Origin: Desulfovulcanus ferrireducens
Lineage (GTDB): Bacteria; Desulfobacterota; Desulfovibrionia; Desulfovibrionales; Desulfonatronovibrionaceae
DNA length: 40,222 bases
Assembly: GCF_018704065.1 (NCBI RefSeq)
Contig: NZ_JAGUQP010000028.1
Span: forward strand, 1 to 40,222
Reading direction: 5' to 3'
The position numbers and the translations under genes were made by a program. Below, piece by piece: positions 1 through 40,222 of the stretch (the stretch's first letter is position 1; every line of letters begins with the position of its first letter). The notes below the pieces were generated by a model. The model did not search any database and was not told the DNA's origin. It was given only the letters and a program-made list of their open reading frames with translations.

Positions 1-534
1 GACCAAAAGCTGAGTTACGGTGTCTTGATGCACCAGAAAGTTGAACGGTCTGTCACGCCTAAATTCTTATTTCTTTATCTCTTAAATTTGAAAACAGGTG
101 ATGTAAACATACGAGAAAGTTGAGTTATAAATAAAAATGTGTATTTTTGACTAAAAAATAGCTAAATCATGAGCCGCGAATCACAGATTAACTCTAGCCT
201 TTTGAGCCTAATTTTTATATCCATTTTCCCAGATTTGAATTGTTGAGTCGCGGGTAGGGATGCTTATCTGTGTTCAACCTGAATCTAGAGTTCAGAACAG
301 AGTGTTTTCACCCGCTACCGACTTGGAATTCCCAGCTGAAAAAAGTTTGGTTAGGCAAGTCATTATGTTTATAATTGAACCCTAATAAAATTGATATTTT
401 TATCCAGTTGAAGGCTGGATTCAGGGTAACAGGTATGGATAAGTCATTCTGAGCACAAGGGGAAAGAATCTCTTGTTGCTTTTTCTTGTAGACGAATCTG
501 ATTTTTTCGATGTATTTCTGTACAGGGGGAGAAA
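1..534. other. Gene-free leader region before the LUD gene
   Basis: No convincing reading frame on either strand. The stretch is AT-rich. At 443-472 it holds a diverged copy of the GTCATTCTGAG...GAATCTC repeat that recurs at 21806 and 36808. The last bases before 535 carry a purine-rich ribosome binding site (GGGGGAG, six bases or so before the ATG). Loose inverted matches occur between about 185-205 and 265-295 (CACAGAT/ATCTGTG and AACTCTAG/CTAGAGTT), but they do not form a clean hairpin. Confidence 0.5.
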
Positions 535-34710: not shown

Positions 34711-35300
34711 GGTGGCGTACTATTTGCTTGTCCCACAAACTATTTTTCTAATAGTAATTTCCGGTGTTTGTCAAAGATGATGTCGCCTGAGTTGGTTTTA
34801 AGAGCTTGAAGCCGAATCTTTTTATCAACTTAATTTGTTTACTAAAGTTTAGAGTTTAAATTACTGGAAGTCGGACGCACCTCTCTATTATCGCCAGTTA
34901 AGCGAGTAAAAAATATTTTGTAGTTGCTGAATAATTCTTAATTGTCAGGCTATCTTGCCATAAATTGAATCCAGGTGCTGTTTTTTTATGATCATTTTTT
35001 GGGACTTTCGGTCCCACAGGCAGCGAACCTTGAAGTTTTGAAAATAAAATCTGATACCAGTAGCTATCCATCCGGCAGTTATTGGTTGCTCTGTACGCCA
35101 GGGGATTGAAAAGAAAGACTTTGCTTCCCCTGGCTCCAATACTAAGGACAATAATGGGAGTGAAATTAAGATTCCTGGTCTGAATTTCCTTTTTCTTCTT
35201 CTCAATCCATTTTTTATGCTTTTCTACTACCTTTTGAAGGACCTCTTCCCCCAGGGCAAACGCACCTAAAATTCTTGCAGTAGAGGTAGCTCTAGCCGTG
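34711..35300. other. Gene-poor stretch with repeat fragment and unassigned short frames
   Basis: No gene I can support. A fragment of the foldback element lies at 34802-34836. On the minus strand, about 34945-35295, two overlapping frames without stops look mildly protein-like; one contains VVEKHKKWIEKKKKEI, another PWRTEQPITAGWIATG. Neither shows a recognisable family, ribosome binding site or full domain. Given the decayed genes to the right, this may be another remnant. Confidence 0.4.
34802..34836. repeat. Left-end fragment of a third foldback element
   Basis: About 35 bases (starting GAGCTTGAAGCCGAATC) match the left end of copy 2 at 31749 with only a few differences, then the similarity stops abruptly. 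The remainder of the element is missing. Confidence 0.7.
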
Positions 35301-35309
35301 TTAAATTAT

Positions 35310-35773
35310 GTCCCCTTACCAACTGGTGTTTCATTTTGGACGGGCCGAGGTTTAAGCTGCTGGGTGATTCATTTTGAGGGCTGTTTGCCTGTCGAGGCCA
35401 TGGCAGCGCGAGGGGAAATGACTCTGGCTTATGGTCCCCGCTGAAACCAGTGGGGCTTGTTGACCCGCGAACCGGAAAACAGCCTTTTGCCGTTGTCCAG
35501 TTAAGGGCTGAAAACCTGGACAAGACTGCCTTTAACCTGGTTGGCTTTCAGACAAAACTCACCTATCCGGAGCAAAAAAGGGTCTTCAGGCTCATTCTGG
35601 GCTTAGAGGAGGCAGAGTTTTTGCGCCTTGGGAGCATGCAGAGGATTTTTTATGTTAATGCACCCGAGGTTTTGACTCCGAAGCTTATGCTTAAAAAAAG
35701 CCAAATATATTTTTGCCCGGACAGATTACCGGGGTTGAGGGATATCTGGAATCCGTTCCTAAGCATTTCTTCT
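35310..35773 (+). pseudogene. trmFO: trmFO remnant (tRNA m5U54 methyltransferase, folate-dependent)
   Basis: Pieces of the TrmFO C-terminal half appear in order but in three frames. [19 protein letters not shown] (from 35373) is in one. [18 protein letters not shown] and [17 protein letters not shown] with [10 protein letters not shown] are in a second (about 35444-35715). [12 protein letters not shown] (from 35719) is in a third. The first switch falls in a C-run near 35435 and the second near 35714. The N-terminal FAD-binding part is absent. With no intact copy in the window, this is a decayed, truncated gene; the organism may have another copy or have lost the modification. Confidence 0.85.
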
Positions 35774-35794
35774 GAAATCACATCCCTAACCTTT

Positions 35795-36110
35795 TACTCT
35801 CTTATCTTCGTACTCCTCTCCCCTTACAAATTCTTCTCCAAGGAAACATATTTTTCTACAGTCAAAAACGGTCAGGTATCCAGCACTTGTCACATTTATC
35901 TATACAGCTCCATGTTTGCTCAGGCCTTTCTGAACGGCTGTCTTTAGGTCTTTATGCAATTTTAACTCAATAACTATTTTTTTAAAGCCCTCCTTAGTCT
36001 TCTGTATGGGCAAAATAACAAGCAGGTCTGTCCTTTTCCTTCCGGGTCATATTCACTTAATCTTTCCACAGCTATTAACTATCCGTAGCAAAAAGCTCCG
36101 CTGCAAGGGA
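35795..36110 (-). pseudogene. Remnant of a PD-(D/E)XK nuclease/AAA-ATPase-type protein (C-terminal end)
   Basis: On the minus strand, in broken frames and in order: SFLLRIVNSCGKI, then YDPEGKGQTCLLF, then [20 protein letters not shown], then [13 protein letters not shown], then [12 protein letters not shown]. This is the layout of the nuclease-like tail of a family of AAA-type ATPases, which reads roughly RIVNGGGRI, GRGRTDLL, IVIELK, GLEQTxxYMDxC and GHLVIFDR. Stops and frame changes interrupt it, so it cannot be functional. Family identity is by motif recall and is less certain than for trmFO. Confidence 0.65.
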
Positions 36111-36806
36111 TAGAATTTTATGGCGTATGATGCAGTACTGATAGTGTCCATTCTTGTTGGATCTTTTGAATCCCTTACGTCTTATGATAAGTTTTTTTAC
36201 AAATAATTTAAATAGATTGCATGTGTCTAGACTGCAATTTATTCTGTATTGATGTCAGGTATTAAGAAATATTTAAATTAATGGTTGACAAATTTTGATA
36301 ATTGGTTAAGGCGTGATGTATAATAGTAATTTTTTTATTTTTTTTCATATAAAAATTTTTATAATAATATGTAAAAACGTACTCAAACCTCTTTTTATAA
36401 CTGTCTTATATGTAATAATTTTTGATAATATTCATAGCGAAAAAGATATGTTCTTCATCGTATAAATTATTTATAATCGCTAAATATACTATAGATAGAT
36501 TTAATATAAATCAAAAATTATTAGTTGTAGTGTCTATGGGTTTAGATTAGCAAAGAGTTATATTTATATTATTGTGGGGCTGACCTCTTTATCTCCGAAC
36601 TTTTGCATACATTTGTGTAAGGTATATTTATGTTTATGGATTTGGCTACAGGGTCTTCACTGTCTTATCTGGGTATTCTGTGACAACTGTAGCCTGTTAA
36701 CGCTAAAAGATTATCAAGCTGACTCTTTGGGCCGAATTTGGCGCAGCTTGTCTATACGCATCGAAAATGACTTTAGAAAAGGGTGTATCCGCTGGTTACC
36801 TTGATT
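36111..36806. other. Very AT-rich gene-free region
   Basis: From about 36180 to 36570 the sequence is dominated by A and T runs, clearly richer than the surrounding backbone. No gene is supported; the one open frame (36574-36804, plus) encodes a Cys/Leu/Trp-rich peptide without a ribosome binding site. It holds an orphan promoter candidate at 36295-36324. Such stretches often lie at the edge of acquired DNA, here next to the RHS gene. Confidence 0.55.
36295..36324 (+). promoter_or_regulatory. Orphan sigma-70 promoter candidate in the AT-rich region
   Basis: TTGATA (5 of 6 to TTGACA), an 18-base spacer and a perfect TATAAT. The next supported gene on this strand begins at 37053, so a transcript would carry about 720 untranslated bases or encode a non-coding RNA. 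In AT-rich DNA chance matches are frequent. Confidence 0.4.
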
Positions 36807-36807
36807 A

Positions 36808-36884
36808 CGTCATTCTGAGCGAAGCGAAGAATCTCGTTTGCTACGTTAGAGATTTTTCGGTCGTTTCGCTCCCTCAGAATGACG
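36808..36884. repeat. Palindromic hairpin repeat (CGTCATTCTGAG type)
   Basis: Perfect 12-base ends CGTCATTCTGAG (36808-36819) and CTCAGAATGACG (36873-36884), continuing inward as GCGAA / TTCGC and GAATCTC / GAGATT-like pairs. The whole 77 bases can form a hairpin. Single arms occur at 21806-21833 and, diverged, at 443-472, so it is a dispersed family in this genome. Confidence 0.82.
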
Positions 36885-37052
36885 AGGAGTGGAAAATATT
36901 TTTGGATTGAAACAACTTGCGGAAACACCTTTTAGAAATAGTTTTTAGGCATACAGTTTTGTCGTTGACAGGCTGGATTGTCGAGCGGGTTAACCTATAA
37001 AGATGATCCGGTTTAGCGCTTTAGGCAAAGACATTAAGGAAACAAGGGGGGA

Positions 37053-40000
37053 ATGATGCTTAAGGTGAAAACGGCTTTTTTTGTGATTTCGTTTCTTTGT
37101 TTATTTGTGCTTCAGTTAGGGACCAGCTGGGCTCATTCCATCCCCGGACCTGAGGCGGACCGACACAACACGGTTTATTCATACAACATCTCTGAAGTTG
37201 CTTTGGATGCAAGCAAACAGTTGCATGTGACCATAAACGTCTACATGTGCCCATACTGCAGCCCGTACAATAACTATGTGAAGGTTAACGTCGTGGGTAT
37301 TGGGACCAAATATACACGAAACACGCCGGTAGGAACCACATGCACCCGTAGTTTTATCTTTGACGCGTCAAGTTTGAAAGTCGGAGACATAGTCCAGATT
37401 AAATCGGACGTGTGGTGCGAGTGGTGCGGCCATTGGCGAGACAGCAAGACGTTTAAGGTCGAACAGAAGATAGTCGAAATGCCCGGGCTGGGCTATAAAT
37501 GCAACATGACTCTTGTCGAGATAGGCTCATTCGTAAATGTAGCCAATGGAAACCTTTTCTACTCTCGCCAGGTATCCCCGAATCCTAAGTTACCCTTGAC
37601 ACTCAATTACAACAGCCGCTCGAACCGGCAGAGCCGTTTTGGTTTTGGCTGGAATGACAGCGCAGACATTCGCCTTGTCAGAAAAACCGATGGTACGATC
37701 ATCTTAATCGACGCGGATGGGAGGGAAGAAAAATTCTCTTCAAATGCCAATGGTACTTTCTCTTCGCCACCAGGGAACCATGACTCTCTCAAATTGAACA
37801 AACAGGTTCTGTTTTCGGACGACATGGAAAACGGCAATGGATCATGGGCCGCAGACGATCCGTGGGGGCAAGTCACTTCACGTTCGCATAGTTCCAATAC
37901 TTCATGGACGGACAGCCCGAACGCTAACTATTCCAACAGCGTTCATAAGGCATTGACATTGGAGTTGGACCTTTCCAATACAGCAGTAGCCAGCATGACC
38001 TTCTGGCATACTTTTGCCTTGGAAAACGGCTACGATTTCGGCTACATCGAGATTTCTAAAGACGGCGGGGCCAACTGGACTTTGCTCAAGAGCTATACTG
38101 GGTACCAGAACGACTGGGCCAAGCAAACCGTCAGCCTCAATAGTTATGCCGGGTTATCCAACTTGTTGTTGCGGTTTCGTTTGATTACAGATTCAAGCGT
38201 GACATATGATGGCTGGTATATTGACGACGTCGAAATCAGTGGTGGCAGTAGTTACCAACTTTACCGAAAAAGAGGTAGTATTGTCTGCTTCGATCAAGAC
38301 GGTAAACCTTATCGAATCGAAGATAGGAATGGCAACGCAATAATTTACACCTATGATGAAGATAAGCTGTCAGCCATTACCGGGCCAGACGGAGATGTGT
38401 TGTATATTAGCAATGATTCTAACGGTCGCATCACCCAAATCAGCGATGCCACCGGCCGGGTAACAAGTTTTACCTACGACGCTGACAACAACCTGACCTC
38501 CATCACCAACGCGGCGGGCGACACCTGGAAGTTTGCTTACGACGGTGTCCACAATATGATAGCCAAAACCGACCCGCAGGGTCAGACAACCCAATACAGC
38601 TATGACAGCGACGACCGGTTGCTGGGCTCCACCGATGCCGCCGGCAATAACCGCACTGTGGAATATGTAAGTGATGCAGTAACAAGAGTCACTGATCCGG
38701 CTGGCAATACCTCGGAGTACACCTACAATAATTCCCTGAATGTCATCAGAAAGGTGGATGCTTTAGGCAATATCACGGAATACACCTGGGACGCTGACTT
38801 GAACAAAATCAGCGTTACCGATGCCTCCGGCACGATCACTTATAGCTATGACAGCTTCGGCAACATGCTATCCAGGACTGATCAGAGTGGCAGCACAACC
38901 AGCTATACCTATGACGCCTTTGGCAATATTCTCACCATTACCGATGCGCAAGGCAACGTCATCTCCAATACTTATGACGAAAAAGGCAACCTGATATCGA
39001 CCACAGATCCGGCGGGCAACACCACCACCTACCAGTACGATGCCAAAGGCCGTATTATAAGCGTCACCGATGCCAATAAGCGGGTGACAACCTTCGGCTA
39101 TGACGCAGCAGGCAACCTGATCACCATAACCGACCCCATCGGCGCTACCATCACTATGACCTATGATGCGGCGGGCAACATGGTGACCATGACTGACCCG
39201 ACAGGCAACATAACCACCTTTACCTATGATGTCCTTAACCGGCTCATCACAATCACCGACGCCAAAGGCAATGTGACCACCTACGGGTATGACAAACTCG
39301 GCAACCGGGCATCAATCACTGATGCCAACGGCAACACGACCTTGTTTACATACGATCACAAAGGCAGGGTTACCAAAATTGTTAACGCCCTGGGGCATCT
39401 CACTGTTTTTACTTATACCGATGCGGGTTGCCCATCTTGCAGTGATACCGGCAAGAACAGTCCCACATCCATCACCGACGCAAATGAGCAGACAACGATA
39501 TTCAAGTATGATGCCTTGGGGAGGTTGATACAGGAGTCCGACCCTCTGGGCAAATGGGTCTCCTATACTTATGATGCTCAAGGGAATCTCATCTCCCGGC
39601 TTGATGCCAAGGGTGAAAGGACCAGCTATACTTATGACGCCTTGGGCCGGTTGCTGAGTATAACCTATCCTGATGATTCCACCACCTCGTTCAGCTACGA
39701 TGTCAAGGGCAATGTGATCACGGCCAGTAACCAGCATATTGGTTATGCCATGGAATACGACAAGCTGGGCCGATTGACCAGGATCACTGATTCCTACGAT
39801 CGGACCATATCATATAAATATGACGCGTTAGGCAACCGGGTGCAAATGACTATGCCGGACGGTGAGTTAGTGACCTATGAATACGATAAAGCTAATCGTC
39901 TGTCGAAGACAGTCGGTTTCGCCGGCAGTTTCGGCCTTGACTACGATGAGCTGGGCAGAAGGACCAGCTTGAGATATCCCAACGGCGTCACGACCTCCTA

Positions 40001-40222
40001 TACTTACGATACTGTCGGCCGTCTGGTGGATTTGTTGACCAAAAACGCTAAAGGTGACATTTTAAGCGCATTCTCCTACACCCATGACAAGGTTGGCAAT
40101 CGTCTGACCAAGACAGAGAGTTATAAGCACCATCACCATAAACATAAGCGTTACGAATATACCTATGACAGTATCTACCGGCTGCTTGAGTCCATGCCGG
40201 TCACAATCAAGAAACACAAGGA
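37053..40222 (+). CDS. Secreted RHS/YD-repeat protein, 3' end beyond the window
   Basis: The frame stays open for 1056 codons from the ATG at 37053 to the window edge. It has a signal peptide (about 1-29, VISFLCLFVLQLGTSWA), then a domain of about 120 residues with paired cysteines (MCPYCSPY, WCEWCGHW). A DUF6531-like RHS entry (NPKLPLTLNYNSRS, FGFGWN) follows, then a jelly-roll insert (about 255-405, FGYIEISKDGGANW, LRFRLITD, DGWYIDDVEI). More than 25 YD repeats (YTYDAxGN/xITDAxGN) come next. A GCPSC motif interrupts them near residue 793, and a His-rich KHHHHKHK lies near the end. RHS proteins form a shell holding a C-terminal toxin or adhesin, which lies outside this window. GGGGGG lies a few bases before the start. 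Base composition is GC-richer than neighbours, suggesting transfer. Confidence 0.9.
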   Translation, partial: MMLKVKTAFFVISFLCLFVLQLGTSWAHSIPGPEADRHNTVYSYNISEVALDASKQLHVTINVYMCPYCSPYNNYVKVNVVGIGTKYTRNTPVGTTCTRSFIFDASSLKVGDIVQIKSDVWCEWCGHWRDSKTFKVEQKIVEMPGLGYKCNMTLVEIGSFVNVANGNLFYSRQVSPNPKLPLTLNYNSRSNRQSRFGFGWNDSADIRLVRKTDGTIILIDADGREEKFSSNANGTFSSPPGNHDSLKLNKQVLFSDDMENGNGSWAADDPWGQVTSRSHSSNTSWTDSPNANYSNSVHKALTLELDLSNTAVASMTFWHTFALENGYDFGYIEISKDGGANWTLLKSYTGYQNDWAKQTVSLNSYAGLSNLLLRFRLITDSSVTYDGWYIDDVEISGGSSYQLYRKRGSIVCFDQDGKPYRIEDRNGNAIIYTYDEDKLSAITGPDGDVLYISNDSNGRITQISDATGRVTSFTYDADNNLTSITNAAGDTWKFAYDGVHNMIAKTDPQGQTTQYSYDSDDRLLGSTDAAGNNRTVEYVSDAVTRVTDPAGNTSEYTYNNSLNVIRKVDALGNITEYTWDADLNKISVTDASGTITYSYDSFGNMLSRTDQSGSTTSYTYDAFGNILTITDAQGNVISNTYDEKGNLISTTDPAGNTTTYQYDAKGRIISVTDANKRVTTFGYDAAGNLITITDPIGATITMTYDAAGNMVTMTDPTGNITTFTYDVLNRLITITDAKGNVTTYGYDKLGNRASITDANGNTTLFTYDHKGRVTKIVNALGHLTVFTYTDAGCPSCSDTGKNSPTSITDANEQTTIFKYDALGRLIQESDPLGKWVSYTYDAQGNLISRLDAKGERTSYTYDALGRLLSITYPDDSTTSFSYDVKGNVITASNQHIGYAMEYDKLGRLTRITDSYDRTISYKYDALGNRVQMTMPDGELVTYEYDKANRLSKTVGFAGSFGLDYDELGRRTSLRYPNGVTTSYTYDTVGRLVDLLTKNAKGDILSAFSYTHDKVGNRLTKTESYKHHHHKHKRYEYTYDSIYRLLESMPVTIKKHK

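What the first reader, a model, noticed from the sequence alone, without database searches (positions are those of the whole stretch)
37053..38270. Unusual N-terminal half of the RHS protein: cysteine-pair domain plus jelly-roll insert
Before the YD repeats there is a secreted domain with MCPYC, WCEWC and a lone Cys between them, spaced like a metal site or disulfide knuckle. Then comes a jelly-roll domain like those of secreted peptidases, placed inside the RHS entry region. I do not recognise this combination.
Basis: partly seen in the sequence, partly recalled or inferred. Interest (0 to 1): 0.55.

Follow-up and report, generated by a model that had tools for sequence, protein, structure and literature searches.

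The report
RHS shell protein, unusual front end
A bacterium related to sulfate reducers encodes an exported shell-forming (RHS) protein whose front end carries a rare cysteine-rich domain and, threaded into the rim of the shell, a second domain otherwise seen in secreted proteases; it is an unusual variant of a known protein class rather than a new kind of system.

Summary
Window 37053-40220(+) is one open frame (1056 aa) that runs off the contig end. It has a signal peptide, a domain with C66-x2-C69, C97 and C122-x2-C125, a DUF6531 barrel plug (159-228), an InhA-like MAM jelly roll and 18 RHS stretches. Aligned to two RHS proteins without the insert, the MAM replaces 1-3 residues by about 150. 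The cysteine domain has no Pfam hit. AF2 predicts a seven-strand sandwich, whose strand order puts five cysteines at one pole (inferred). It occurs once elsewhere among the genomes searched: a Desulfobacteraceae MAG with the same order of parts, all six cysteines, and 80% identity here against 57% in DUF6531. None of 29 other MAM frames was in an RHS protein; 10 distinct ones sit inside subtilases. Best reading: a Sec-exported, probably polymorphic-toxin-type RHS shell, with the cysteine domain as the conserved N-terminal attachment or capping module and the MAM as an outward adhesion module. Metal versus disulfide is open. The C-terminus and any immunity gene are not in the assembly. New variant of a known kind.

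The parts
37053..37133 (+). signal peptide, residues 1-27 (SPI-like, ..SWA|H)
   Evidence: sequence; the relative L033 has ..ALA|H at the same point; judged by eye, no predictor run
37176..37466 (+). cysteine domain, residues 42-138: predicted seven-strand beta sandwich with C66, C69, C97, C122, C125
   Evidence: AF2 on 2 sequences; ten-residue block means mostly 66-88 over this stretch, 54 and 52 at its ends; middling VIA matches to many unrelated sandwiches, best Z 9.2; no Pfam hit in the window protein at E<=10
37248..37259 (+). C66-P-Y-C69, predicted loop between strands 2 and 3
   Evidence: conserved in L033 as CPFC
37341..37343 (+). C97, near the start of predicted strand 5
   Evidence: conserved in L033
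37416..37427 (+). C122-E-W-C125, predicted turn between strands 6 and 7
   Evidence: conserved in L033
37500..37502 (+).
37527..37736 (+). DUF6531, residues 159-228 (the N-terminal plug in solved T6SS Rhs proteins)
   Evidence: PF20148 E 1.2e-12, 48.4 bits, cut-off 24.1; role from PMC10684867 passages
37800..38246 (+). InhA-like MAM jelly roll, residues about 250-398, inserted between two entry strands of the RHS fold
   Evidence: PF20773 E 3.4e-10; AF2 and fold search; insertion boundaries by local alignment
38247..40220 (+). RHS/YD repeats, residues 399-1056, cut by the contig end
   Evidence: PF05593 E 5.5e-131, 18 stretches; TIGR01643 E 5.3e-105
35367..36927 (+). upstream stretch copied from (or to) the trmFO-RHS-remnant region of contig C9; not part of the protein
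   Evidence: blastn 95% over 389 bases and 88% over 1.1 kb

Best explanation
A Sec-exported RHS (YD-shell) protein of probable polymorphic-toxin type. Shown by sequence: a signal-peptide-like start, DUF6531, YD repeats, the in-frame MAM insertion, and strong conservation of the cysteine domain. Inferred: the repeats form a hollow barrel, DUF6531 plugs its N-terminal opening, and a C-terminal effector lies beyond the contig end. The cysteine domain is the conserved N-terminal module that holds or caps the shell at the producer's surface; because it has changed least, it probably docks on a conserved partner. Its two CxxC pairs and C97 come together at one pole, as a metal site or disulfide cluster that stiffens the domain outside the cell. 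The MAM jelly roll, threaded into a hairpin next to the plug, must project outward at the rim and most likely binds a glycan or surface protein of producer or target. The D-P pair at the start of DUF6531, where solved Rhs proteins are cut, reads S-F here and S-A in the relative, so the front end may stay attached (inference).
For: Domain calls over their cut-offs. Precise insertion of about 150 residues against 1 (L082) and 3 (L004) residues. The same order cysteine domain-DUF6531-start of MAM in a second organism. Identity 89/111 in the cysteine domain against 40/70 in DUF6531; dN 0.124 against 0.342, with pS of 0.78 or more in both. Predicted sandwich. MAM fold match to InhA2, MAM and reelin structures. 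DUF6531 is the N-terminal plug in Tse5, and adhesion domains at the N-termini or among the RHS repeats of exported RHS toxins are described (passages of PMC10684867, PMC3482391 and PMC13018210). A remnant on C9 beside a copy of the same upstream DNA has a typical RHS-associated core.
Against: No C-terminal effector, aspartyl-protease core or immunity gene of this gene could be seen. No secretion route across the outer membrane was tested. Only one relative of the cysteine domain, also at a contig end and in a MAG, so conservation rests on two sequences. No carbohydrate- or protein-binding site was shown on the MAM. The C9 remnant's link to this gene rests on shared upstream DNA, not on overlapping coding sequence.
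Confidence: 0.58

Rival explanations
1. A surface or periplasmic YD-repeat adhesin or scaffold without a toxin: the shell displays the cysteine and MAM domains for cell-cell or matrix attachment and carries no effector.
For: Both added domains look like adhesion or accessory modules. The cysteine domain is more conserved than the plug. No effector is visible because the contig ends.
Against: DUF6531-type plugs are found in toxin-carrying Rhs proteins (passages of PMC10684867, PMC12704120). The remnant on C9 ends in a standard RHS-associated core.
Confidence: 0.25
2. A decaying gene in a rearrangement-prone spot, with no present function.
For: The upstream DNA is a broken copy of another locus with a trmFO fragment. 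A second RHS locus in the genome is reduced to its tip. The gene is cut by the contig end.
Against: 1056 codons without a stop; synonymous positions saturated while the cysteine domain keeps 80% identity to a distant relative; all six cysteines kept.
Confidence: 0.07
3. A teneurin-like bacterial protein (TLP) with its own N-terminal adhesion modules.
For: Signal peptide, N-terminal adhesion-type modules and YD shell, the layout described for TLPs, which occur in Thermodesulfobacteriota (PMC13018210). Teneurin-2 is among the middling fold matches of the cysteine domain, Z 7.3 at rank 31.
Against: No NHL hit at E<=10, and the teneurin YD-shell model scores 34.8 against a cut-off of 50. The plug is DUF6531, which belongs to the plug type described as unlike the FN-plug (PMC8765631).
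Confidence: 0.03
4. An RHS effector loaded on a type VI secretion tip, with the front end as loading domain.
For: DUF6531 plus YD repeats is the core of T6SS Rhs effectors (PMC10684867, PMC8765631).
Against: A signal-peptide-like start, and no PAAR hit in the protein at E<=10.
Confidence: 0.03

Closest known systems
Tse5 / RhsA / Rhs1 (T6SS Rhs effectors)
   Same: DUF6531 plug followed by YD repeats (roles from passages)
   Different: Signal-peptide-like start and a cysteine sandwich instead of PAAR-type front ends; MAM insert after the plug; no D-P pair at the plug's start
WapA and other Sec-exported RHS polymorphic toxins
   Same: Signal peptide, accessory domain, DUF6531, RHS repeats (PMC12704120 passages; PMC3482391 passages)
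   Different: No DNRLRE, LysM or other wall-binding domain found; cysteine domain and MAM instead; the host belongs to a phylum of Gram-negatives (recalled)
Bacterial teneurin-like proteins
   Same: Exported YD-shell protein with variable N-terminal adhesion modules (PMC13018210 section 6)
   Different: DUF6531 plug, no NHL hit
InhA-like MAM domain (PF20773) of InhA (M6) peptidases and nested in S8 subtilases
   Same: Same domain family; also inserted between His and Ser motifs of 10 distinct subtilases in searched genomes
   Different: Host protein is an RHS shell, not a peptidase; 0 of 29 other MAM frames examined had an RHS or DUF6531 match

Membership tests
RHS / YD-repeat proteins | tandem YD repeats | tested here: met
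   PF05593 E 5.5e-131, 18 stretches
RHS / YD-repeat proteins | DUF6531 N-terminal plug | tested here: met
   PF20148 48.4 bits, cut-off 24.1
RHS polymorphic toxins | RHS-associated core with aspartyl-protease motif | not testable with these tools
   gene cut by the contig end; the only core in the genome is on contig C9
RHS polymorphic toxins | variable C-terminal toxin and immunity gene | not testable with these tools
   beyond the contig end
T6SS Rhs effectors | PAAR-type loading domain | tested here: not met
   no PAAR hit at E<=10 in the 1056 residues
WapA (Gram-positive) | cell-wall binding domain such as DNRLRE or LysM | tested here: not met
   no such hit at E<=10
Teneurin-like proteins | NHL propeller before the YD shell | tested here: not met
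   no NHL hit at E<=10; sequence test only
Teneurin-like proteins | teneurin YD-shell model (PF25023) | tested here: not met
   34.8 bits against a cut-off of 50
InhA-like MAM domain PF20773 | profile match over the curated cut-off | tested here: met
   40.2 bits, cut-off 26.9, profile positions 47-162 of 191
InhA (M6) peptidases | metallopeptidase catalytic domain | tested here: not met
   no peptidase hit over its cut-off in the 1056 residues; an M36 model gave 31.3 bits against 1700, over the MAM
Ig / FN3-like sandwich (cysteine domain) | seven-strand antiparallel sandwich | tested here: inconclusive
   strands predicted; matches spread over many unrelated sandwiches at Z 7-9; no Foldseek hit at E<=0.001
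Zinc ribbon / Cys4 metal site | four cysteines within bonding distance of one metal | not testable with these tools
   no coordinates returned; strand order only
Thioredoxin-like CxxC redox domain | thioredoxin fold | tested here: inconclusive
   all-beta prediction; one chance-level PDB sequence hit to thioredoxin, E 1.1

The most novel reading that the evidence does not exclude
The cysteine sandwich is the first described member of a domain family that works as a redox- or metal-controlled latch on the N-terminal plug of an exported RHS shell: with the pole cluster formed the shell stays shut and docked, and loss of the metal or reduction of the bonds loosens the front end and lets the cargo go, tying effector release to redox state in anoxic communities.
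Probability: 0.07. Interest if true: 0.65.

Novelty: new variant of a known kind. Interest (0 to 1): 0.36.

Why it matters
Front ends decide where exported RHS shells sit and whom they meet, and few outside the T6SS and Gram-positive types have been studied (recalled). This one offers a small domain under strong selection with a fully kept cysteine pattern, and a clean case of a jelly roll inserted at the rim of an RHS barrel. Both can be expressed alone. The same MAM module inserted in unrelated folds (subtilases and RHS) suggests a mobile insertable adhesion part, which can be tested by glycan and surface-binding assays.

Tried and rejected
Cysteine domain in known families: no Pfam hit for the window's domain at E<=10; L033's gave only E 0.08 and 0.13, far under their cut-offs. 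PDB by sequence: two chance-level hits, E 0.45 and 1.1. Teneurin TTR or superoxide reductase kinship: both appear among the fold matches but at the level of many unrelated sandwiches, so not used. PHROGs and PADLOC were not searched.

More relatives of the cysteine domain: apart from G000 and G577 themselves, none convincing; 199 genomes, two others with only the DUF6531 part; 395 genomes, nine partial matches at E 0.028-0.098, five of the nine with stops inside, taken as noise; 395 genomes around G577 (apparently the same sample), only G577; 291 genomes with alignment A1, 13 others, starting at model position 91 or later; phmmer found no cysteine domain in their frames; 297 genomes, only G000. 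IMG/VR: 17 candidate stretches, none confirmed. Plasmids: one hit at E 8. Phages: none. The scan of 84,980 genomes uses exact eight-residue patterns and misses divergent relatives.

MAM in IMG/VR: one short hit (L081), judged a chance peptide match. A three-way MAFFT alignment to show the insertion misaligned; replaced by local BLASTP of 12 RHS relatives. In that call L082 and L004 give clean flanking pairs, several others give overlapping or repeat-shifted pairs, and L089 gave none. RHS fragments in G577 on other contigs (L045, L046, L048) could not be joined to its gene and were left. Heme binding by CxxC was rejected: no CxxCH.

Literature: searches for RHS with MAM/InhA, DUF6531, YD repeat with jelly roll, teneurin with YD-shell and plug, Rhs with Sec signal, InhA-like MAM with subtilisin, RHS in Desulfobact- and InhA with MAM listed no paper on this combination, judged from listings; the library is open-access only.

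Full report
What is there. The window is the whole of contig C28 of a 2.59-Mb, 60-contig genome. The finding is the front of an open frame at 37053-40220(+), 1056 residues, which runs off the contig end. Order of parts: a signal-peptide-like start (1-27); a cysteine domain; DUF6531 at 159-228 (48.4 bits, cut-off 24.1); an InhA-like MAM domain with its best stretch at 295-395 (40.2 bits, cut-off 26.9); and 18 RHS-repeat stretches (E 5.5e-131). The cysteines are C66, C69, C97, C122, C125 and C150, then C412, C793 and C796, with C16 in the signal peptide. Five of nine mature cysteines fall within 60 residues, P = 0.0046 by random placement.

The organism. The only relative of the cysteine domain in a scan of 84,980 species' genomes lies in a MAG titled Desulfobacteraceae bacterium S15.Bin066. 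The first sampled genomes of its phylum have the same sizes as those of the window's phylum, so I infer that the window's host belongs to the same phylum (Desulfobacterota).

The relative. L033 9013-9801 has the same order: signal peptide, cysteine domain, DUF6531, and the first residues of the MAM (..IVFSDDMES) before its contig ends. All six cysteines are kept. Identity is 89 of 111 in the cysteine domain (28-138), 13 of 20 in the linker, 40 of 70 in DUF6531, 16 of 30 in 229-258 and 9 of 25 in the signal peptide. dN is 0.124 in the cysteine domain and 0.342 in DUF6531, while the synonymous difference is 0.78-0.94 per site in the signal peptide, cysteine domain, DUF6531 and 229-258, and 0.64 in the linker, so dN/dS cannot be given as a number. 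The cysteine domain is thus the slowest part compared. This rests on two sequences.

Fold of the cysteine domain. AF2 with these two sequences gave mean pLDDT 49.5 overall; residues 42-138 came out mostly at 66-88 in ten-residue blocks, with 54 and 52 at the ends, as seven strands: 44-51, 56-64, 74-80, 84-89, 96-104, 113-122, 126-135 (converted from model numbers). If the strands alternate up and down, as in an Ig-type sandwich (general knowledge), the loops 65-73 and 123-125 and the start of strand 5 lie at the same end, which gathers C66, C69, C97, C122 and C125 there. I had no coordinates, so this is inference. Foldseek gave no hit at E<=0.001; VIA gave Z 7-9 to many unrelated sandwiches, best 9.2 over 96 residues at 2.6 A, which the tool's own note treats as possibly only a common arrangement. 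I therefore claim a sandwich, not a family.

Metal or disulfide. CPYC and CEWC resemble the knuckles of zinc ribbons (recalled), which favours a Cys4 site, with C97 and C150 left as a possible disulfide. Against: the protein is exported, and the genome has a 344-residue VKOR-like frame (26.8 bits, cut-off 27.5) with a CxxC tail, so disulfides could form. I leave this open.

The MAM insert. A single-sequence AF2 model (mean pLDDT 57.5; residues 50-150 of the model mostly 62-80) ranks InhA2 first (Foldseek E 1.3e-5; VIA Z 9.3, 119 aligned, 3.7 A), followed among others by astacin-MAM and reelin. Local alignment to RHS proteins lacking it places the insert exactly: window 158-249 and 399-512 match L082 501-597 and 599-711; window 158-246 and 398-515 match L004 43-134 and 138-252. 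About 150 residues thus replace 1-3. The other relatives (10 of 12) were less clean and are not used for boundaries. DUF6531 is described as the plug at the barrel's N-terminal opening (PMC10684867, passages), so the insert should sit at that rim, facing out (inference).

How rare. Among 395 genomes of the phylum, 24 including the window's own have MAM relatives at E<=1e-6. In my frame survey, 28 of the 29 other places were recovered (L073 was not), plus L047 of G577: 29 frames, of which some are the same protein twice (L055/L076, L052/L075, L072/L078). None has a YD or DUF6531 match, within the stretch held for each locus. In 10 distinct proteins the MAM lies between the His and Ser motifs of a subtilase (motif matching). 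Conversely, none of the 19 DUF6531 frames from other genomes in the survey (L004-L007, L082-L091, L093-L097) has a MAM or cysteine-domain match. The cysteine domain was found only in the window's genome and in G577.

What it most likely does. Sec-exported RHS toxins carry adhesion domains that anchor them to the producer or touch the target, some at the N-terminus and some among the repeats (PMC3482391, passages; PMC13018210, section 6; PMC12704120, passages). By that pattern the cysteine domain is the conserved attachment or cap, and the MAM an outward adhesion part at the rim. In RhsA and Tse5 the chain is cut before a proline at the start of this region (P305, K47-P48). L082 reads GDPVN there, the window GSFVN and L033 GSAVN, so that cut is probably absent and the front end stays attached (inference). 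The C-terminus is unseen: the last 423 bases match nothing else convincingly, and the only RHS-associated core in the genome is a remnant on C9.

The C9 remnant. C9 carries a full-length trmFO-like frame (66917-68242; named from the PF01134 match of its window fragment, and by eye), a spacer and an RHS tip of 178 residues that ends after NFYAYVWCSG. Window 35367-35755 and 35805-36927 are 95% and 88% copies of C9 67601-67988 and 68732-69885. So a second RHS locus beside the same DNA has lost its front and repeats. This supports a history of rearrangement, not a function.

Verdict. The protein is a new variant of exported RHS shell proteins with one rare, strongly conserved domain; it is not a new kind of system.

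Noticed in passing
G000:C9:69841-70374 (L080 5342-5875): RHS tip remnant with a typical RHS-associated core and no front or repeats, beside a copy of the DNA that precedes the window's RHS gene.
   Followed up: partly
window 35367-35755: Broken duplicate of trmFO (PF01134 match) upstream of the RHS gene; the full-length frame is on C9 at 66917-68242.
   Followed up: partly
window about 36804-36907: Interspersed repeat of about 100 bases (CATTCTGAGCGAAGCGAAGAATC..), with more than fifteen matches across the genome.
   Followed up: no
window about 34800-34840: Short repeat of about 40 bases (query positions near 100-137) with many copies in the genome.
   Followed up: no
L087, L088, L094: Three RHS relatives carry a CxxC pair in or next to the same hairpin where the window's protein carries the MAM insert.
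   Followed up: no
G000:C16:51746-52081 (L098): VKOR-like frame of 344 residues with a C-terminal CxxC region, just under the Pfam cut-off.
   Followed up: partly
L047, L053, L054, L055, L057, L058, L060, L064, L066, L068: InhA-like MAM domains nested inside the catalytic domain of secreted subtilases.
   Followed up: partly
window 37001-40000: GC of the RHS gene (48-51% per kb) is higher than most of the contig.
   Followed up: no
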